DNA of 64,000 nucleotides from Ascidia mentula. Lineage: Eukaryota > Chordata > Ascidiacea > Phlebobranchia > Ascidiidae. This document shows, one piece after another, positions 8,898 through 59,829 of the stretch (positions within the stretch are counted from its first letter, which is position 1; each line of letters begins with the position of its first letter). The stretch covers positions 17,737,001-17,801,000 of the forward strand of contig OX387199.1 in NCBI GenBank assembly GCA_947561715.1. The letters run 5' to 3'. The position numbers were made by a program, and so were the translations under genes. The notes under the pieces are model-generated. The model did no database searches and was not told the origin of the DNA. It was given only the letters and a program-made list of their open reading frames with translations.

Positions 8898-9249
8898 CTA
8901 AAATACATAGAAATCATTGAGAACGGGGATGCAAGTGAGTAAATTATGTTTTTGAAAACTAAAACTCACAAAAATAATTACAACCGGTCATTTAAAAAAT
9001 GGTTTTGATAAAATAAATTATTGCGCTGTGCAGTGACAGGTCAACAAATTATTTTCTTGTTTGTTTTGCTGAGTTTTGCTATAGGAGCGGCCTTAGGAAA
9101 ATTCTTCCGTTATGTCACACCCCACATACCATCCAACCATCTGCACTAAAAGCTTCTTTGCCTGATTTAGGAGTTTGGCGGCCCCAGAGCAAAACTGTTT
9201 CACACGAGTCCAGAATCACGTAGTTGTTAAGTTGCTGGAGTTGTTGGAG

Positions 9250-9460
9250 AGCTACAGACAAGGTGTACACGCACTGTTTCGACCTGTAAGGTCTGATCAG
9301 TGCAGTTGCTGACACTAATTTCCACTTTGTGGTACCTTTCGGTCAACGTCGATCCGTTTGGTACCCTATACTGAGTACCAAACAACAGAGACCAACCACT
9401 GTGGAGCGCACTAAGGCCAAACGGAACTGCTTGGTAACCGATAGCGCTAAAGGGTAAAAC
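9250..9460 (-). repeat. Hammerhead family-A repeat copy
   Basis: On the minus strand 9250-9310 reads: stem I 5' strand ending CUGCA, core CUGAUCA (one change from CUGANGA at G8), stem II GACC-UUACA-GGUC, GAAA, a stem III that can close on CUUG, then GUC and stem I 3' strand UGUAGC. The flank 9311-9460 matches 31693-31830 closely and, more distantly, the reverse complement of the 269-bp unit at 32161-32429, so the hammerhead belongs to a defined repeat family. Confidence 0.6.
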
Positions 9461-10121
9461 CCAATGCAAATAAAAAATAAGATTGACGAGGAAAAATGGC
9501 GATTTGTAAAGATTTTGCTGTTTTTTTGTTTCGTGAACAGCATTGTCTCATTTATTGGCAAAAGACACTTATCGCTAGATTTATCTGTGAGTAAGAAATG
9601 AGATACCTTTGAGAGACAAACTTGGTAAACATTTTCTGTGATGACAAATGCTCGCCGTGCGCCAGTTCCTCGTGTTAAAGGCCATGTGGTATTTAAAAAT
9701 TGCTTACTGTTTTGCAGAGCCTGAAATGTTTTACGTTTTTTTTTTTGGTTCGCGCTGGGTTAGTTTCTTTTTTATAAAGATTTTTTAAATATTTTGCGAG
9801 TTGTTGTAAAATCGTGTTTTGATCGGTTTGTACGTCATCTTAATGCATTAATCCAGTTATTGACTTTATCCATTCTTCTTTTTTCAAGATTTTAAAAAAT
9901 ATGAATTATTTTTCCCACCGCATTCAGTCCAACGTACTCTACTTCTGGCAATAGCGCTTGTAGTTTTTTCTTCAATAAGACAATCATACTTATACCTCAG
10001 TTCTAGCCTTAACATGGTCATCGCTTTATCGTGTGGCTGAAGTGCAAAATTTTAACTTTCGAGTCTTGTCTCAATTTCTTTTTTAAAAAGTATTGCTCTT
10101 CTGGCATAAAATAAACGTGTT

Positions 10122-13691: not shown

Positions 13692-15272
13692 TTATATTGA
13701 ATCCCGTTTTCTAACCTCCAATTCGTCAAAAAGTTGCTCTAAATCCAATCTTCTGTCTGGTCTTGTTGTCCCACTCCGTGTCGTCAGTGGCCTTCTGTCT
13801 GGTCTTGTAGCCCCACTCCCTGTTGCCAATGGCCCTCTGGACTGTAGGCCTCTGCCTGATGCCGATGGTCTACTGCTTGATGGCCGCATTGTCGTACTTG
13901 ATGAAGAACCAACTGCACACAAAACAAGATATAACATGCAAATTATGTCTTTCTGCGTACAAACATCGTAAATTTTCTCTCATATTTGAGATCGTTAAAA
14001 AATTCGCCGCAATTATATACAATTACAAAAAGAGTCAAAACTATCTTAGCGAATACTTGGTTTCTACGAACGTACACATTTGTGCGATCCTGTAAATTAA
14101 ATGCAATGGATAACATTTTTAACCTACCACCTCTTCCTGAGGCTTGACCTGGGATTGTAAGATTCCTGAGAGAACTCCATTTGTCTTTGCGAGGGTCGGG
14201 ATGAAAGACCTGAATACTCTTGCTTGCTCTATCAATGCCGCGTTGCAAATGCGAATGGCTGTACTCGGTAAGTTGTTCTTGTAAATGTTGCAACACATCG
14301 AGCATATCAGGCCTACGTTTGGGCTTTTGCTGCCAACAACTTTCCATCACATTAATCAATATTTCAACACTCTTCCAATCGGGTTCATTGAGGTTCTCCA
14401 TCATCGTTTCTATTTGGTCGATTGGTGGACGCCATCCTGTTTTGATTTTGGATATAAATATTTGAGGTCGGTTTTTCAGATCGCACCTAGTCAAAAGAAC
14501 GTAGATCACCAATGCAAAAGAATAGGTGTCTTGCTCTTTCCTCACGGGCAAAGCTGGATTACACAGAACTTCTGGAGCCGCGAACAATTCCGTCCATTCT
14601 TCGCGTTCAGGATTTTGTGTGGTGGGAAACCCGGTGTATTCACACAACTTTGCTCCACCAAAGTCGGATAACTTGCAGTGAAAGTACTTGGAAATCAAAA
14701 AGTTTGCAGGTTTGATGTCACAATGCACCATGCGCTTAGACTCTGTTACATTGTGAACATTCGCAATGCCTGCAGCGATCTCGGTGCACATTTTCAACAG
14801 AACAGGCACCGACAAACGCACATGTTTGTTGATCAGTAAACTTCCAAGATCTCCATACTTGCAGTATTCCATGACAATCGCTATCATTCCTTCCCATGTT
14901 GTCCAGCCAAACAGTTGCACTACGTTAGAGTCTTGAGAGATTTGATGATGTTCTAATTCCATCTCGATTCTGAAAATTATGTTCATTCCCCATAATGCAG
15001 GTACAATACCGAACAACAATTTTTTTACTTGCTTTTGTATTTGAATTACAGTTATATTTTGGTGTAATTTGATACTGATTCGGGGAAAATTGATTTAAAC
15101 AAGTTACGCTGCCTTACTTGTGCATTTCAGATCGTTGGGCTCGGAAGCACTTTAGTGCAACGAGTCCTAACTCTTGGTGGTTGGCAAGTCTTACAACTCC
15201 GAAACCACCTTTCCCGAGCTGTCCATGATCTCCTTTAAGGTACCGGAATTCGTCGGGATGAAACTGTCGCAT
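13692..15272 (-). CDS. Non-RD protein kinase, TKL/RIPK-like
   Basis: Three exons are seen: about 15122-15272, 14133-14970 and 13692-13925. Exon 1 starts with an ATG directly after an acceptor-like AG and carries the glycine loop GKGGFGVV and VALK. Exon 2 adds the helix C region (IEMELEHH), VMEYCKYGDLG, the catalytic loop HCDIKPANFL, SDFGGAKL, the activation-segment end FAAPEVL and the C-lobe motif KPKRRPDM. Exon 3 is a Ser/Thr/Arg-rich tail with repeated TRPDRR and ends LEVRKRDSI. All catalytic residues are present, but HRD is HCD, so the enzyme is a non-RD kinase, a form common in innate-immune kinases. Junction phases agree (K-I after exon 1, G-V after exon 2). Upstream exons may exist beyond 15272. 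Substrate unknown. Confidence 0.8.
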
Positions 15273-18957: not shown

Positions 18958-20362
18958 TTATATTGAACTCCGTTTTCTAACCTCCAATTCGTCAAAAAGT
19001 TGCTCTAAATCCATTGTTTTGTCTGGTCTTGTAGTCCCACTCCTTGTTGCCAATGGCCCTCTTTCGAAGGACTGTAGGCTTCTGTCTGATGCCGATGATC
19101 TACTGCTAGATGGCCGCATTGTCGTACTTGACGAAGAACCACCGGCACACAAAACAGATATAACATGCAATTAAGTATTTCTGCGTACAAACATCGTAAA
19201 TTTCTCTCATATTTGAGATCGTTTTAAAAATTCGTCGCAATTATATACAATTACAAAAAGAGTCAAAAACTATCTTAGCGAATACTTGGTTTTTACGAAC
19301 GTATGCATTTGTGCGATCCTGTAAATTAAATGCAATGGATAACATTTTTAACCTACCACCTCTTCCTGAGGCTTGACCTGGGATTGTAAGATTCCTGAGA
19401 GAACTCCATTTGTCTTTGCGAGGGTCGGGATGAAAGACCGAAATACTCTTGCTTGCTTTATCAATACCGCGTTGTATTTGCGAATGGCTGTACTCGGTAA
19501 GTTGTTCTTGTAAATGTTGCAACACATCGAGCATATCAGGCCTATGATTGGGATTTTGCTGCCAACAACTTTACATCACATTAAGCAATATTTCAACACT
19601 CTTCCATTCGGGTTCATTGAGGTTCTCCATCATCTTTTCTATTGGGTCGGTTGGTGGACGCCATCCTGCTTCGATTTTGGATATAAATATTTCAGGTCGG
19701 TTTTTCAGATCGCACCTGGTTAAAAGAACGTAGATTCACACAACTTTGCTCCACCAAAGTCGGATAACTTGCAGTGAAAGCACTTGGAAATCAAAAAGTT
19801 TGCAGGTTTGATGTCACAATGCACCATGCGCCTAGACTCTGTTATATTGTGAACATTCGCAATGCCTGCAGCGATCTCGGTGCACATTTTCAACAGAACA
19901 GGCACCGACAAACTCACATGTTTGTTGATCAGTAAACTTCCAAGATCTCCATACTTGCAGTATTCCATGACAATCGCTATCATTCCTTCCCATGTTGTCC
20001 AGCCAAACAGTTGCACTACGTTGGAGTCTGTAGAGATTTGATGATGTTCTAATTCCATCTCGATTCTGAAACTTATTTTCATTACCCCATAATGCAGATA
20101 CAATACAGGACGACAATATGTTTTTTTGTTCGAATTACTGTTATATTTTGGTGTAATTCGATACTGATCCAGGGGAATCTGATTTGAAGCAAGTTACGCT
20201 GCCTTACTTGTGCATGACAGATTGATGGGCTCGGAAGCACTTGAGTGTATCGAGTCCTAACTCTTGGTGGTTGGCAAGTCTTACAACTCCGAAACGACCT
20301 TTCCCGAGCCGTCCACGATCTCCTCTAAGGTACCGGAATTCGTCGGGATGAAACTGTCGCAT
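18958..20362 (-). pseudogene. Kinase pseudogene, copy B, 133-bp deletion
   Basis: The three exons of the copy-A kinase are recognisable (ATG at 20362; HCDIKPANFL; SDFGGAKLCE; C-terminal LEVRKRSSI). Relative to copy A, 133 bp equivalent to about 14507-14639 are missing at about 19736, which removes the activation segment with FAAPEVL and shifts the frame so translation stops soon after GGAKLCE. In exon 1 the glycine loop is GKGRFGVV and the ATP-lysine motif VALK has become DTLK. It therefore cannot encode an active kinase. A truncated N-lobe product is possible but unsupported. Confidence 0.85.
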
Positions 20363-27359: not shown

Positions 27360-27452
27360 CAGCGGTCTTGCTCCCGACCCATTTACCAAGAAATAAACCT
27401 GATCGAGATTCGTGTCCAGGATGTTGTGGATTCGAATCCCGATGTGGTCCAA
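27360..27452 (+). repeat. tRNA-derived SINE, decayed copy
   Basis: It shares cgaccc..taccaagaaa, tgatcg..attcgtg and the B-box region ggattcgaatccc (27428-27440) with 31840-31945. The tRNA-like 3' region and A-rich gap suggest a pol III SINE. Confidence 0.5.
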
Positions 27453-31640: not shown

Positions 31641-31692
31641 TTGCCCCTTAAAACCCCCTCTCACACGCCTTGTATATAAACCTCGCAGGCAC

Positions 31693-31830
31693 ACTAAATT
31701 CCACTTTGTGGTACCGTTCCGGTTAACGTCGATCTGTTGGGTACCTTACACTCAGTACCAAACAACAGAGACCAACCACTGTGGAGCGCACTTTGGCCAA
31801 ACGGATCTCCTGCGTAACCGATATATAGTG
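31693..31830 (-). repeat. Hammerhead family-A repeat, body without ribozyme
   Basis: Nearly the same sequence as 9311-9460 (ccactttgtggtacc, then ccaaccactgtggagcgcac) and a diverged match to the reverse complement of the 269-bp unit at 32161. The ribozyme part is missing. Confidence 0.55.
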
Positions 31831-31839
31831 ATATATTGG

Positions 31840-31945
31840 CGGGTGATTGGCAGCATTGACCAAGCGCCCGACCCGAATACCAAGAAAAAAAACTTGATCG
31901 GAATTCGTGCGCAGGATGTCCTGGGTTCAAATCCCGGTGTGGTGA
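31840..31945 (+). repeat. tRNA-derived SINE copy
   Basis: The 3' part carries ggttcaaatcc (31924-31934), a perfect pol III B box, followed by a tRNA-like ending, a short A tract and a TA microsatellite. The same unit recurs at 27360-27452. The A-box side is not clear. Confidence 0.55.
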
Positions 31946-32136
31946 AAAAAAAAATATATATATATAGTGATAAGCATATTTTACTGCAAACAAGATGTCG
32001 TAAAATTCTTTGCAGGACACTCTGTGTAAATCGCATCACAATTCACATTCCATCGTCAACATTGCATCAAATGTTCAGCAGCAACATTTTTCGTTTGAAG
32101 TTGTTTTTCTAACAATCAATTACTCTTTTGCATTCA

Positions 32137-32485
32137 ATATCATCTGATAAGCAATGATGAGACCTTTTAGGTCGAAACAGTGGCCATCTGCCTGCAGCTT
32201 ATACACAATTCATATTATTGGCTCCACTTTGCTTATCATATATGATTATTGTGGCACGGGGCCTGACGGCACTATTGGTTGAGCTTTGCTTGGCCGTAGT
32301 GTTCTACCTTGTTTTCTCCGTAAGGTTGCACCTAGTTTGGTGCCCAACGGATGACGGTGATTGTATAGTCACCACGAAGTGGAAGTCTTGCTTGGCCGTT
32401 TGGTCAGCAAAGTCGTCTGAAAGTGATGAGACCTTTTAGGTCGAAACAGTGGCCAACTGTCTGCAGCTTATACACAATATCATCT
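32137..32485 (+). repeat. Tandem hammerhead-ribozyme repeat (269-bp unit)
   Basis: Two type-I-like hammerheads lie exactly 269 bp apart (stem II starts at 32161 and 32430). Each reads UGAUGA, GACC-UUUUA-GGUC, GAAA, then CAGU-GGCCA-xCUG. The second copy continues with UC to form GUC and stem I strand UGCAGC. In both copies the first base of the CUGAUGA box is changed (A or G), and in the first copy GUC is GCC, so both look inactive. Tandem units of a few hundred bp each with one hammerhead are the structure of animal retrozymes and hammerhead satellites. Confidence 0.65.
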
Positions 32486-33518
32486 GGTTCTTTCGCGACT
32501 AATTTAAACTTTCACGGAAATTTAATCGTTTTGTTGAATGTTTGCTGACGTGAGAGGGTAAAAGTGTGTGTATTCTTGAACTTGTGAATTCTGATGAGGT
32601 ACAAATTCCAACCACACTTCATGAGTTTGGTAAAGAATTCCTCGGCTGTTTATGTTGGTTCTTGTTTGAAATATCGTCATGGCGAAAATAAAACAGGTTC
32701 TTTACCCACCTCTCGTTGTCGCTTAACGTCATTTGTTACCAATGATTCAGCTTCAATGTACAATGAAAAAATAACTCCCGCCTGTGGGCGATCGAGTGCG
32801 CCAAACCAAACGACAAATATTTGTCGGAATGAGTAAATTTATGGCATACTCTTGTAGAAAGGGTTCTCTTTTCTTTGAACAAAAACATCGAAACAAGGCA
32901 ATCTACTATACCTTGGTCGCACTCCACTGTGAACTTGGTTCATGGATGTAATGTCGAATACACTTAATACCATCGTGTCTGATGCTCGATGCTCAGATTA
33001 GGTGCCAATGGAAAGTGAATGAAAGCACCAGTGACAGAATATAATCTGAACATATCGTGATATTTACGAACTAACCTATGACTGCCAAAATGTATCACTC
33101 TTGCCCACACAACCTGTATCACATGAAACAGGTCATGTTTCACGTTCCCACTTCATCACAAAATTATCACAAACACGTTTTTCTGTTTTTCACAGAAAGT
33201 CGGAAAAGTCGAGGAAGGTGAAGAAACAAATAAAATAAGAACACAGTGTTGACATTAAAACAAGTCAGATCATAGACCCAATTGAAATAAGTTTAAATAT
33301 AACGAAGGCATCAAATGTGGAAGTCAATAAAATGAAATCAGCTCAAAACAAAAACTTTTATATGCTTTGCCAAGTTATGCTATCTTGTACAAAGCCTATT
33401 AAAATCTCAAGTTGAACCCATCTCCAAAGTACAATTTACGTAGCTTGAATATCTTTGAAGTCTGCGACCAAACAAAACTTTTCCTCGAACAACAAATACC
33501 AACATGATGGTTCATAGT
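32486..33518. other. 3' flank of GON4L, nothing recognised
   Basis: No coding sequence recognised; frames at 32594-32836 (+) and 32736-32927 (-) have no known motif. The 3' UTR of GON4L must extend into the right-hand part. Confidence 0.3.
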
Positions 33519-36500
33519 TTATTCATCCGTGAAGTCGCTTTCTTCACTTCCGTCCTGGCCGCTCTCATCTGTGTCGTCACTCGTCAACAGCGCCATCAAG
33601 TGACCAAACCGCGTTTCTGTGTCTTGCCGCTTTAACACCTCGGAAGCCTGAGCAACATAAGATTGTGACACACAAGTGCAATTTTTTTCCAAAATGTAGT
33701 GTATTTAGTATAACATATCGCCAACTCTTCCACCATAAATGTTGAACTATTTTAGTGTTTCAGGCGCCACAAAAAGTGTAACAGTCGCCTCATTCCGTGA
33801 ACAAAATCCACAGTGTGAAAGCAGCACAAACAATAATGATCAGTTTGTGAGTCATCAATAAACCACATTGTGATGTCACGAATGTCAGGGGTTGCCTGGA
33901 TTATGAAAGTTTTAATATTCACCTTCTGAAAAGCTTCTTTACTGGGACCCATTTCTTTACAAATGCTCAACAATATTGCGTCATCATTTCTTGTCCATGA
34001 TTCTTTGGGTTCATCGTTGCTGCCTATTTTAACAAATTAAACAGCTTGAGTTCTTGCAAAACAGTTTTTTTTCCCAATGTTTGGTGATATACTGGCCATA
34101 ATATGTTATGATAAACCTGACAATTAGTTTTGCAATGCAAAAAAACAGATTTAAAATTATAAAAAGATGAAGGTATTTAAATTCATAAAGAAAAGAAAAC
34201 TTTTTTAATTTTACATTTTCGGAATAACTTTTTGTCTGGGGATCCAGTTGGTGTGTTGGGAAGATCTGATCCAACTGATGAGGATTGAGCATCAGCATCA
34301 CCTCTGTCCGGCAAAGAGATCGTTTCGTGACTTTCCAAAGAATTGGTTGGAGTTTTTGGTCTGGTCATACATGGCACAGTTAGCTTCCGTGACAAAGTTT
34401 CCAACATTTGTTGTGTTACCTGTCATGTGTGTGATGAAGTGATGTTGCGGAGTTGTGTCTCTTGAAGGGACTGCAGGAAAGAGCATCCTCCGATATGACT
34501 ACAATGTCTGGAGGAGGAAAGGGGGATTCCATGCGATGAGGATCACATTGTCTGAAAACATGGATTAAAAATCACTACAGTAGGTTTGAGTCCATGGAAA
34601 CCGCCCATATATCAGGTGTTCCTGGTAATTTCAGGAATTACTCCCTGATTCTGTTGCAATCACAAGATGACTTTTATATCCTATTATTCATATCACAAAC
34701 TTGTGTATCAGATGTTTCGGTAATACCCAGAATGTCCAGATGGCAATAAACGTAATAAACCACCACTACTCAAATTCAGACCTAAATAGCTGGTGGACGT
34801 ATTTAATACTGCAAGTTTCGGTAGAACATGTATGGAGAAAAGTTTTCAGACAAAATATTTAATATGTGAAATGTGTGGGATTGGATCAACTAATTTTTGT
34901 CGTTATGATAATAAATGCTCTATGCTCACTCCATATCCTCCACATCACTTTCCTCCTCTGATCTCGGAGCTTCCTCCAATCCATCCTCTCCTACACAAAC
35001 GATCACATGATATGTTGCCATAGAAACAAATGTTATAAAAAGAAGCATTGAAAAAAGAAGAAACTTGATGATTTTTTTCCAATAAATTATTTTTGAGGAA
35101 AATATGAGCAGTGCTTCTTACTGCTTCCTGTGCAATGTTGCATCTCTTCATCGTTGCTTTGTCGAGGGTCAACATTCTCTTTCATGGTGTTGAAATCTTT
35201 ATTCCGAGGTTTACTCGGATGTGAAATTTTCACTAAATCATCTCCTTGACCTGCATCCATCATTCAATCAGTTGTGAAACTTTTAAAAGTTATACTACTT
35301 GCTTCTGCACAGTTTTTCTATAGGTATAGACCAGAGGCTGACACAGCGTATTGAAAAATTTTTAAAGTTAGTTTGACTGAAAGTTGAACAAGATTCAACA
35401 GATTGTTGGTCAGGGAAGATTAGTTGGTGATTTGAACACTGCCGATCACACCCAGTGACATTTGTTTGAATCTTTCTTAAACCCAACAAGATGAAACTTC
35501 AACATATGCCAAACCTTTACCCCCTCATATATAAGCAGCATGTGTAGCAAACAAGCACGACGCACAGTCAGTATAGTTAGTGATAATGGACACAGTATAG
35601 TTAGTGATAATGGACACAGTATAGTTAGTAATAATGGACACAGTATAGTTAGTAATAATGGACACAGTATAGTCAGTGATAATGGACACAGTATAGCTTT
35701 CATGTTCAGAAACACAAATAATTCCACCCACCGTCCTCTACCCCAGGCAAATTATCGTGGACTTCGGCTGATGGGATGTAAATCTGCTCAAATGAACTTC
35801 CAGCATCCTAAAACATAGAAATAAATGTTACATAGAGATCAACACCAATCCGACTGCTGACCTTATGAAGGTCGTCACTCCAGATTATTTCTTCATAGTC
35901 TCCGTGCAGCCTGCTTTCTGGTGGTCTTTCGTCATCGAAAAACGTAAGAAATTCTTCTTGTAGGTAAATATCAGTCTTCAGGAGACCCAAAATCACCTTT
36001 TTCATCTGAAGTCGTTGAAAATTTACAATGTCAGGATTTGAGATATGCACACATGGTGGCAGACCAGAGCATAACATAATGAACAACAGAAATATACAGG
36101 AGTCGAGTGTTCATGGTGGCATGTCTAACAATACATGGTTAACTAGGATATATTTGATAACTCTTTCTTCATGGTAATGGTAAGTTTAGTTACATGCATG
36201 TATATATCAGCTTACAATGGTAACTCATGGAAAACAATTAACGACAATTAAGCAGCGAAAATTACATTTTAAACCTTAAAACGTACATGATAATACTTGA
36301 TTAACAGAAAGATTTTTATGCCTGAAATAAATTTATAATTTTGCTGTTTCCAAAAAGGGCCTTACTAAAATATAACAAACAACCATATCACCTCTTGTTC
36401 AGTGTGGATTGGTCCTTCCGCTACGGCGTGGAACGCACTCAAAATCCTGTTCAGGTGGTGCGGGTTGTCATGGAAACGGATCTCGAGTTGTCGAAGAAAT

Positions 36501-50176: not shown

Positions 50177-53100
50177 TTACTGTAGCTTATTTTGGTGTTT
50201 TTCAAGTTCTTCCATCAATTCCTCTGATATTCCACAGCCTACAAATATAAATTCTTTACTAGCTTGCATCATGTTTTTGACTTGTCGACCTCCATCATCT
50301 CCAATCTGGTTGTTGCTCATATCAATATCCTGTGAAAATAAAAAAAACACTTAAATAAACAAGGAAGTTGCAGAAAATATCACTAAAAATATTCAATCCT
50401 ACCCAAACTTTCCACTTCTTTGTTGCAGCCACCATCTCTTGACCAATTTTAGTAATACCACAATTAATCATTTTTAGCCTTCCAATATTTAAGCCAGATG
50501 ATGCAATAAGTTGAAGTCCACGATTTCCTACTTTGCATCCAGAAACATCAAGCTTTATCTTAAAAAGATCAATTTGTTAAGAATAGAATAAACCAGCACA
50601 AAACTTGTTCTGAATTCAAAAACATACCAACGGATTGAACGAACTTCTCTTTAAGGTCTGAACCAGAACATCAACATGTGTCAAATTGTAAGCTTTAATT
50701 GAAAAATAATCTCTAACATTGTGCCTTGTACAACCAAAGCTCCATTGCAAACTTTTTTCCTCAAAATGGGGAATCAATGGCAATGTATATTGGGAAAACA
50801 TGTGAGAAATTACAAGATAAGACAACAAAAATCCGGGAAAGTCTCTTTCTTGTTTTAACCATCTGGAGTCGTTTGGTATTTGAGCAAATTTGTTTTCACT
50901 AAGAAACACTGTTGACTCTACACATATCATCTGCAAGAAAATCACGTTAAAAACACAAAATTTGTCACAAAAAAAAAGAAGTTTGGACTGACGCATACCT
51001 TCAGGTTGTTCTCTTTAATTGCTACTTCAAACAATTCGAAAGAGTTGCCATCAAAATTTCCTGAAATCATGTCAATAACCTTTCCATACTTTTGTGTGTA
51101 GTGGAAGAAATAGGAAACATCATGAGGGTAAACAGTGACATTCTCCACATCAATAGATTTGGGAAACTTTGAAAAAATATTCCTTTCTACTTCTTCATCT
51201 TGGGCCTCACTTGCCCATCTGCATGCCACAAATATGTTTGGAATGTGAGAAAACAAAACTTCTCCTTTTTCTGGTATTTCATGACTAGTCATATTTTCTT
51301 CACCTATTGTATTTTTGTTGCACAGCCCAAATAGAAATGTAAATATCATTTGATCTCGAGTAAACCTTTTCATTAACTGAGAAACAGACTCTCTAAACTC
51401 TACAATAGACTGAAAAAAGACCAAATGACGTGCTGCAAAGTAATCTTGCCAAATACGATGTGAAAAAAAGCTGATTTTGTCGCAATGCAAGACTTGCAAA
51501 TTTAAATTAGCAGAAACTGAGAGTGAAGTGTGAAGAAATGAGGATCGGTCGACGCCTGCTTCTTTAAGATCATTTTGTGTAAATTGATATTGTTGTTTAA
51601 TGATTCCACACCAAGCTAATTTAGCTATTGGCTGTGCTTCCTTTTTATGGCAGTGTTTGGATCTGCTATACACTGCATAGTAATATGATAAGATGTCAGT
51701 CATAGAAATAAACCCAGTATTTGGGTTAGTCAACAAATAGTTGTGGATTAAAATAAAGAGAAGTGGAATGTAACAAAAACGACCGATTACTGCATTTTGT
51801 TGCAATTTATTTTGAACTTCTTCATATTGATCTCCGCAAACCTGTTTTCCAATTTCCTTTTGAGTTTCTTCACTAAACCCACAAACCTCAACAACAAACG
51901 TTGGCCTAATCTCTGGTGGAAGCTCAAAGAATTCTTCTGGTCTGGATGTAACAAGTTTTTTTGCTTGGGGAAAGATATTTCCACTTAATAGATTGGCAAT
52001 GATGGCCATTGGGTGAGCTTCGCTACGTAAAGATACACTTGGATAAACTTTTGTGAAAGTTTCCACATAAGCTTCATCAAGACCGTCCAAAATTATGAGA
52101 AGATTGGGATCATTGCATAACAATTCTGCTAGATGGGACATTTGGTTATCTGTAAGTTGAATATCAGAAAGACAGCAACAAAGTAAAAGTGAAATTAAGT
52201 TGGTGTTTTTACTGAAATCGATGGATCTGATTTGGATGTAGAATATAAAAGAGGTTTCTTTTAGAATTGAACGTTTAACTACTTTCCCAAGAAAAACTTT
52301 CGTAAAAGTAGATTTTCCAACACCAGGTTGACCCAAAGCGATAACTATATTACCATGTTTTTCAATTTGCCTTTTTTCTGCATGCTTATTGGTAGCATTT
52401 TGAAGCTGAATGGAAGCTTTTGCTTCTTGAAAAATACATTCAATTTGAACATTACCCTTTGGGTTTGAGTTAGTACTTTCTTCTGATGACTGGGTTTTTA
52501 GTTTTATTGTAAGTTCAGGAATCCCAAACCCAACTTTGTTTACAGTTTTCACAGAGTGATCAATGGTTCCAGAAATTTCCCTGGCCTTCTGCCACAACCT
52601 TTGATTTATATCAACTGAAAAATACATATATGCAAAGCTGGCATTAAGATATATTTAGTCTTTTTTGCAAGAAGGTTTCCTTTTCAGATTTAAACCAAAG
52701 TTACAATACAAGATATTTTTGGTTTTAATGTAATTTCTATATAGTATTGTAAATATATATATAGATCATGAAAAAAAAAACTTACCAACAAAAACAGCAT
52801 TTTCTGAAGAAGCATGTTCTGCAAAATACATTCATAAACCTAACAACAGATACTAAACCCTGGGCTTGTGCAGAGTAAAATGTTCCAGCAATAAAACAAA
52901 ACACAATATGTATGTACTTTTCCTTCAAGAATCAAGGATGACAATATTTAAAGCATTAATGTATGTTCATACCTTGACTATTGCCATATTGGTTAATGTT
53001 GACATTGCCCACCACATCAACAATGCTCCCTGTGATCTTTGAATGACTTGCTTCAAATCTTTGGTTAAGACCTGTAAGAAAACATGGAACTGCCACCAAC

Positions 53101-59064: not shown

Positions 59065-59274
59065 ATGACCTATAGCTGAAAGTGAGGTCAGCAACCATCT
59101 GTGGGAAAAATCGGATCATCATGTTAATTTTTATTCACCCAAAATTCTACATAGTTCATCAAAGTAACATCAAATCCAAATTGCTAATTCTCAAAACACT
59201 ATACATTCAGCAACACAAACCATCATTGAACGTAGATGACAGCCCCAAACCTTTCTACCAGGTCAACATTTAGG

Positions 59275-59480
59275 TCCTTACTGCAGCTTGACACATCTCA
59301 ACTGATGACGTCGCTGCTGTGTTGTTGATGCTGCTGTCACGTGACGCACCTCCGGCGTGTTGCTTGGTGTTGTTGTGTTTTCTTCTGCCCGTTCAGTCCC
59401 TTGTCTACCTCGGCGCTTTGCTGCGTTAGCTCATTATAGTACTGATGACGCAGTTAGTGTTCGAAACGTCTACTTTAGGT
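59275..59480 (+). repeat. Repeat ending in a family-B hammerhead with intact core
   Basis: This is the inverted partner of 183-440. At 59433-59480: stem I 5' strand AUUAUAGUA, core CUGAUGA (59442-59448), a weak stem II, GAAA and CGUC, then stem I 3' strand UACUUUAGG. Stem I pairs at seven positions with one U-U mismatch; stem II keeps only about three pairs, so cleavage would be poor. All core nucleotides are intact. Confidence 0.55.
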
Positions 59481-59829
59481 AACATGATTAATAGCATATT
59501 AGCTTTGGCTTATTCTATTTCGAGTAATTAACAAGCACCCAAGGACTACTGAAATCGTTGTAAAGTGTGGCTAATTATCGGAAAACTACAAAATTTCGAC
59601 TTAATTCATCAAATCAAATAATTGTTTTCTGGTTGGTTGTGTATTAACATTTAACACAACGAATATTTACAAAGCAGTTTAAAAAATCACAGATTCAAAG
59701 AAAGCAACTCAACAATAAAATAATTGAAGGAAAGATGTCAATGTCCGTGGAAGCTTTTGTACAAAGTGTGTTAATATAATCCAATATTCAACTACACCTC
59801 GTTTTCAAAAACAAAAGTCGAGCACTGCC

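What the first reader, a model, noticed from the sequence alone, without database searches (positions are those of the whole stretch)
32137..32485. Hammerhead-ribozyme tandem repeat with a 269-bp unit (family A), retrozyme-like
Two copies of UGAUGA + GACC-UUUUA-GGUC + GAAA + CAGU-GGCCA-xCUG lie exactly 269 bp apart on the plus strand. The second continues into GUC and UGCAGC. Consensus over this and the copies at 1843, 9250, 38140 and 44791 restores a full type I hammerhead: stem I GCUGCA/UGCAGC, CUGAUGA, stem II, GAAA, stem III, GUC. Each copy in this window has a core lesion at a different place, as expected for decayed descendants of one active founder. Seen directly: motifs and spacing. 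Known: retrozymes and hammerhead satellites have this plan. Inferred: that this family moved as a small RNA-derived element.
Basis: partly seen in the sequence, partly recalled or inferred. Interest (0 to 1): 0.78.

Follow-up and report, generated by a model that had tools for sequence, protein, structure and literature searches.

The report
Sea-squirt hammerhead retrozyme with Penelope-type ends
The repeat is a worn copy of a small non-coding element that carries a self-cutting RNA and has spread widely through a sea-squirt genome, and the shape of its insertions suggests that the enzyme of Penelope-type retrotransposons pastes it in from two fixed starting points at once.

Summary
The motifs are real: an identical 32-nt hammerhead core stands at 32155 and 32424, 269 bp apart (0 in 100 shuffles). 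The genome holds 4,192 sites within 3 mismatches of the core (control 0) and 362 exact copies of an intact 57-nt type I hammerhead (control 0). The family unit is 284-285 bp; 269 bp is a deletion seen only in this copy, a dead 328-bp insertion (32147-32474) between 12-bp target duplications. It fits the known animal non-LTR retrozymes. The new part is the insertion anatomy. Listed neighbouring sites are minus/plus 18 times, plus/minus never. Of 30 distinct two-armed insertions with a scripted duplication, 29 end once at site P1 (unit position about 54) and once at P2 (about 81); none ends twice at one site; one (L006) is odd. Penelope-like elements (PLEs) in the same genome show the same plan. 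A PLE enzyme priming at two RNA sites, one per target strand, most likely moves the retrozyme. RNA circles and enzyme action were not testable here, and no partner PLE was identified.

The parts
32135..32146 (.). Left copy of the 12-bp target-site duplication CAATATCATCTG
   Evidence: Printed; exact repeat at 32475-32486; also found by script
32147..32474 (+). Decayed retrozyme insertion, 328 bp, family A, two hammerhead cores
   Evidence: (90-95% to the 284-bp unit of L025)
32147..32153 (-). 7-nt stub ATAAGCA, read by eye as a minimal inverted arm ending at P2 (reverse complement TGCTTAT); weak because short
   Evidence: and comparison
32155..32200 (+). Hammerhead copy 1, dead: C3 missing, U16.1 changed (numbering recalled)
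32424..32470 (+). Hammerhead copy 2, dead: 5' strand of stem I and C3 lost in a deletion that makes the unit 269 bp
32461..32474 (+). P1-type outer end CTGCAGCTTATACA
   Evidence: same end class as
32475..32486 (.). Right copy of the 12-bp target-site duplication

Best explanation
The locus is a decayed insertion of a non-coding, 284-nt, non-LTR retrozyme of Ascidia mentula. Proposed cycle: (1) genomic arrays are transcribed and the type I hammerhead cuts each unit just before UGCAGC [inferred; intact ribozymes are shown]. (2) Monomers are ligated into circles, or multimers persist [inferred]. (3) The reverse transcriptase and GIY-YIG endonuclease of a Penelope-like element bind the RNA and cut both target strands 12 nt apart [12-bp duplications shown; enzyme inferred]. 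(4) One target 3' end primes at P1, about 16 nt after the cleavage site, the other at P2, about 27 nt further on [paired ends shown; priming is the reading]. (5) The two cDNAs run back along, often several units of, the template and are joined, giving head-to-head tandem arms of variable length [anatomy shown; joining inferred].
For: Intact type I hammerhead in 362 exact 57-mers, control 0. 29 of 30 distinct two-armed insertions with a scripted duplication have one P1 end (49-57) and one P2 end (76-87): 15 with P2 left, 14 with P1 left, 0 with the same site twice. Longest exact direct repeat at least 12 bp in 28 of those 29, against 0 of 812 cross-locus pairs (5 of 812 reach 10). Listed neighbours within 1,200 bp: 18 distinct minus/plus, 0 plus/minus. 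All 29 contain sequence across the cleavage site, so the template was not a cut linear monomer. PLE-1 in the same genome: RVT_1 and GIY-YIG above Pfam cut-offs in one frame, head-to-head 2,870-bp array, 4 of 4 two-armed insertions end at two sites about 40 nt apart with 11-12-bp duplications read by eye. One array each of PLE-3 and PLE-2: two different ends, 39 and about 73 nt apart. A purified PLE enzyme cuts and extends both strands and starts at two adjacent internal RNA sites (PMC11167929, parts 1-2 of 4 read).
Against: No partner PLE was identified: the retrozyme tail has no convincing sequence match in PLE tails. Spacing of the two ends is 27 nt in the retrozyme against 39, 41 and about 73 in three PLEs. 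L006 has one end at about 20-27 instead of P1; one-armed insertions exist (L011, L066, L080 and the L040 fragment end at P1, L041 and L053 at P2). 16 of 59 mapped rows gave no duplication, some of them old or family B. Arms of one element are only slightly more alike than arms of different ones (98.5% of 23 against 97.2% of 600 comparisons), and in some (L064, L069, L075) they are not. For PLE-2 and PLE-3 the reverse-transcriptase domain was not tested. No RNA data. The PLE studied in vitro does not need its hammerhead for insertion. A. vaga PLE duplications are 8-10 bp.
Confidence: 0.8

Rival explanations
1. A LINE-type retrotransposon moves the retrozyme, and the inverted arms come from ordinary twin priming as known for L1 (recalled).
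For: Twin priming also gives minus/plus arms and target duplications (recalled); target sequences are 79% A+T.
Against: Ordinary twin priming predicts no fixed second start; here both ends are fixed and different (29 of 30). The printed right ends show no poly-A or other 3' tail. PLEs with the same plan are present. LINEs of this genome were not examined.
Confidence: 0.1
2. A DNA transposon or MITE-like element whose terminal inverted repeats happen to hold the hammerhead.
For: Head-to-head arms look like terminal inverted repeats, with duplications of nearly constant length.
Against: The two ends are at different unit positions and each varies by several nt; arm lengths vary from none to several units; one-armed insertions exist.
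Confidence: 0.03
3. Satellite DNA spread by unequal crossing-over or rolling-circle DNA, with a relic hammerhead.
For: Tandem organisation; some arrays have identical units (five full units in L025).
Against: Thousands of dispersed sites, 12-bp duplications and fixed paired ends show insertion of separate copies.
Confidence: 0.03
4. Copies of an outside viroid-like circular RNA that enters the genome now and then, not a resident element.
For: The 284-nt non-coding unit (longest ATG frame in three units 46 aa) folds better than shuffles as a circle (z -2.9).
Against: High copy number at all decay stages; it would still need the same PLE-type insertion.
Confidence: 0.04

Closest known systems
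Animal non-LTR retrozymes with type I hammerheads (Cervera and de la Pena 2020, PMC7229834; sections 12 parts 1-2 of 3 and 17 read)
   Same: Type I hammerhead in 150-450-bp non-coding tandem repeats, GC below 50%, target duplications, genome-wide spread, PLEs present beside them.
   Different: New host group (tunicate) and sequence. Head-to-head arms with one P1 and one P2 end do not appear in the parts that I read.
Penelope-like elements (PMC11167929, parts 1-2 of 4; PMC3846280, passages)
   Same: Inverted end copies, a tail at one end only, tandem units, short target duplications, hammerhead motif near the start sites.
   Different: The retrozyme codes for no protein, has a full three-stem hammerhead, a unit about ten times shorter and end sites 27 nt apart.
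Schistosoma W-elements with type I hammerheads (PMC8490949, passages)
   Same: Repeats with hammerheads, thought to be mobile.
   Different: Other sequences and host; no paired-end anatomy in the passages seen.

Membership tests
Type I hammerhead ribozyme | Core CUGAUGA, stem II, GAAA, stem III, UH, with stem I open (recalled) | tested here: met
   362 exact copies of a 57-nt string with all parts; the window copies themselves fail
Type I hammerhead ribozyme | Match to the Rfam model RF00163 | tested here: not met
   No match in the window, in the genome scan, whose own control also rang nowhere, or in four loci with exact intact copies; the reason was not examined
Type I hammerhead ribozyme | Self-cleavage | not testable with these tools
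   Needs in vitro transcription
Animal non-LTR retrozyme | Tandem units of about 150-450 bp with a type I hammerhead | tested here: met
   284-286-bp spacing in arrays
Animal non-LTR retrozyme | GC below 50%, no coding capacity | tested here: met
   47.5% GC, longest ATG frame 46 aa in three units
Animal non-LTR retrozyme | Target-site duplications longer than 4 bp | tested here: met
   12 bp in 17 and 13 bp in 7 of 29
Animal non-LTR retrozyme | Expressed as unit-length linear and circular RNA | not testable with these tools
Animal non-LTR retrozyme | No LTR, primer binding site or polypurine tract | not tested
   No systematic search made
Penelope-like element | Codes for reverse transcriptase and GIY-YIG endonuclease | tested here: not met
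   The unit is non-coding; it would be a passenger, not a PLE
Penelope-like element (insertion signature only) | Inverted end copies with two different start sites and short duplications | tested here: met
   29 of 30 two-armed insertions; PLE-1 4 of 4

The most novel reading that the evidence does not exclude
Animal retrozyme RNAs are templates for a PLE enzyme that works as a pair: two reverse-transcriptase units start at two fixed sites on one RNA (perhaps a circle), each primed by one strand of the cut target, so that each two-armed insertion records both starts. This would identify the mover of animal retrozymes and give genome-scale, in vivo evidence for two-ended target priming by PLEs.
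Probability: 0.6. Interest if true: 0.75.

Novelty: new member of a known kind. Interest (0 to 1): 0.6.

Why it matters
Which enzyme moves animal retrozymes is open: the papers that I read name PLEs only as likely candidates (PMC7229834, section 17; PMC7761336, passages). This genome holds hundreds of intact copies with readable ends, and PLEs with the same plan, so the question becomes testable with a purified protein and a short RNA. It also offers an in vivo counterpart, one start per end, to the two start sites found in vitro for a PLE (PMC11167929). The searches listed no account of tunicate retrozymes; one tunicate paper lists 9 type I hammerhead loci (PMC8704543, passages). Annotation that relies on Rfam would have missed this family.

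Tried and rejected
Rfam scans: no hammerhead, even on loci with intact copies; not used as evidence. The thought that the 269-bp unit was a spreading variant, because L002 has a 268-bp spacing, was rejected: its deletion differs. A sequence match between the retrozyme tail and PLE tails was sought without convincing result; hits in L082, L089, L100 and L104 look like other retrozyme copies near PLE fragments. A covariance model was not built: family A copies are too alike to show covariation. Identity between the two arms leans to a shared template but is not decisive. A hairpin between P1 and P2 appears in folds of the retrozyme and PLE-1, but not in the same form in PLE-2, PLE-3 or family B; kept as an idea only. 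A first count of 20 minus/plus neighbours (and my note) counted two C1 pairs twice; the distinct number is 18. My earlier '29 of 29' left out the odd two-armed L006; it is 29 of 30.

Full report
Observation. The two motif copies are exact and 269 bp apart; 0 of 100 dinucleotide shuffles gave any. Rfam reports no hammerhead in the window at gathering score or up to E 10. It also reports none in L025, L071, L004 and L063, which hold 7, 6, 4 and 3 exact intact 57-mers, so Rfam does not see this family.

Host. The genome has 195.8 Mb in 79 contigs. The lengths of eight contigs and of C70 agree within 0.01 Mb with the nine chromosomes of Ascidia mentula (PMC11109543, passages with Table 2). The paper gives 197.0 Mb in 95 scaffolds, slightly more than is held here. 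The name is an inference from lengths.

Family. A 329-base query from the window gave 118 matches; only 40 of 2,204 candidates were scored, so this is a lower bound. The pattern CTGATGAGACCTTNNAGGTCGAAACAGT with up to 3 mismatches gave 2,113 + 2,079 sites, with 0 and 0 for the pattern read backwards; it covers two families, with stem II loops UUUUA (A) and UUACA (B), among others. An exact 57-nt intact hammerhead of family A, with both strands of stem I, gave 192 + 170 sites, control 0 and 0. In L025 five full units of 284 bp, from both arms, are identical. The unit has 47.5% GC and no ATG frame above 46 aa in three units. Folded as a circle it gives -90.5 kcal/mol, z -2.9 against 100 shuffles.

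The window copy. The element runs from 32147 to 32474, between two copies of CAATATCATCTG. Both ribozymes are dead: copy 1 lacks C3 and has U16.1 changed; copy 2 lacks the 5' strand of stem I and C3 (numbering recalled). The junction that makes the unit 269 bp was found in 1 of 108 held loci. The right end is of the P1 type; a 7-nt stub at the left reads as P2, which is weak evidence by itself.

Insertion anatomy. I mapped 59 locus rows to the L025 unit. They were not a random sample: most were fetched as best BLAST matches, the rest as first pattern hits on C1. 37 rows show both orientations. Of these, 29 have a scripted duplication and P1/P2 ends; L006 has a duplication, one end at P2 and the other at about 20-27; L036 is a second copy of the L034 insertion with the same duplication; L001 (the window) was mis-paired by the script inside its tandem units and read by eye; 5 (L031, L043, L044, L052, L065) gave no duplication. 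Of the 22 one-orientation rows, 11 gave no duplication (some old, four of them family B), 5 were mis-paired inside tandem units (L012, L016, L032, L062, L070), and 6 gave one (L011, L066, L080 and a 43-bp fragment in L040 with a P1 end; L041 and L053 with a P2 end).

Statistics. In the 29, P1 lies at 49-57 (median 54) and P2 at 76-87 (median 81); P2 is on the left in 15, P1 in 14. If each end chose independently, 29 mixed pairs in a row would have a chance of about 2e-9 (my arithmetic). The longest exact direct repeat at the ends is at least 12 bp in 28 of 29 and 10 in one; in 812 cross-locus pairs none reaches 12 and 5 reach 10. Duplications are 12 bp in 17, 13 in 7 and 14-19 in 5 rows, the longest with a mismatch. 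Elements are 302-1,823 bp long. Among listed places on C1 and C2, neighbours within 1,200 bp are minus/plus 18 times and plus/minus 0 times, duplicates removed. Inner junctions vary from element to element.

Template. All 29 contain the sequence across the cleavage site (up to 1 mismatch). A cleaved linear monomer primed at P1 would run out about 16 nt later. So the template was closed or multimeric there; circles and uncut multimers are not separated by this.

PLEs. A GIY-YIG search gave 150 matches (150 of 382 candidates scored). At least three groups lie in fixed-period head-to-head arrays: 2,870 bp (PLE-1), 3,493 bp (PLE-2), 2,668 bp (PLE-3). PLE-1 has RVT_1 (39.7 bits, cut-off 29.6) and GIY-YIG (29.1, cut-off 22.6) in one frame and a minimal hammerhead-like motif, by eye. 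Ten of the 20 loci fetched match PLE-1 and represent five insertions: four two-armed ones (L091/L092, L093-L097, L099, L100) end once near reference 2027 and once near 2068, with 11-12-bp duplications read by eye; L084 is one-armed. One array of PLE-3 ends at two sites 39 nt apart, and one array of PLE-2 at two sites about 73 nt apart; the PLE-2 duplication cannot be delimited in a run of T. For PLE-2 and PLE-3 only the endonuclease match was seen, not the polymerase. No PLE was shown to share its tail with the retrozyme.

Literature. PLEs as movers of animal retrozymes are proposed, not shown, in the parts that I read (PMC7229834, section 17; PMC7761336, passages). One PLE enzyme in vitro cuts and extends both strands and starts at two adjacent internal RNA sites, which explain the PLE tail; its hammerhead is not needed for insertion (PMC11167929, parts 1-2 of 4). 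Inverted end repeats with a tail on one, and 8-10-bp duplications, are described for rotifer PLEs (PMC3846280, passages). The searches (open-licence papers only; top rows of each list seen) showed no title or abstract describing this anatomy for retrozymes; papers outside that library were not searched.

Verdict. A new member of the animal retrozymes, in a tunicate, whose insertions carry a PLE-type two-site signature. The family assignment is firm apart from RNA evidence; the PLE mechanism is well supported by anatomy and untested by biochemistry.

Noticed in passing
window 59074-59511 and 150-438: Remnants of a Penelope-like element, 74% to the 3' part of L082 at 59074-59511 and 63-77% at 150-438, so PLE and retrozyme remains lie in one window.
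   Followed up: partly
window 9244-9469 and 31682-31823: Copies of a second retrozyme family (B), 78% and 85% to a fragment from L048; the latter lies just upstream of the finding.
   Followed up: partly
L100 480-760: A third hammerhead repeat beside a PLE-1 copy, with another stem II but an A-like tail (85% over 47 bp).
   Followed up: no
window 31896-31955 and 27408-27448: Repeated stretch with a tRNA B-box-like string and an A-rich end, perhaps a tRNA-derived SINE (by eye).
   Followed up: no
window 13943-15094 and 19720-20193, minus strand: Two frames with near-identical kinase-like stretches, apparently a duplicated gene (domain name by eye, not searched).
   Followed up: no
window 50942-52654, minus strand: 570-aa frame that looks like a NACHT-type NTPase by eye; not searched.
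   Followed up: no
window 35569-35696: 24-bp tandem repeat, 5.3 copies, 97% matches.
   Followed up: no
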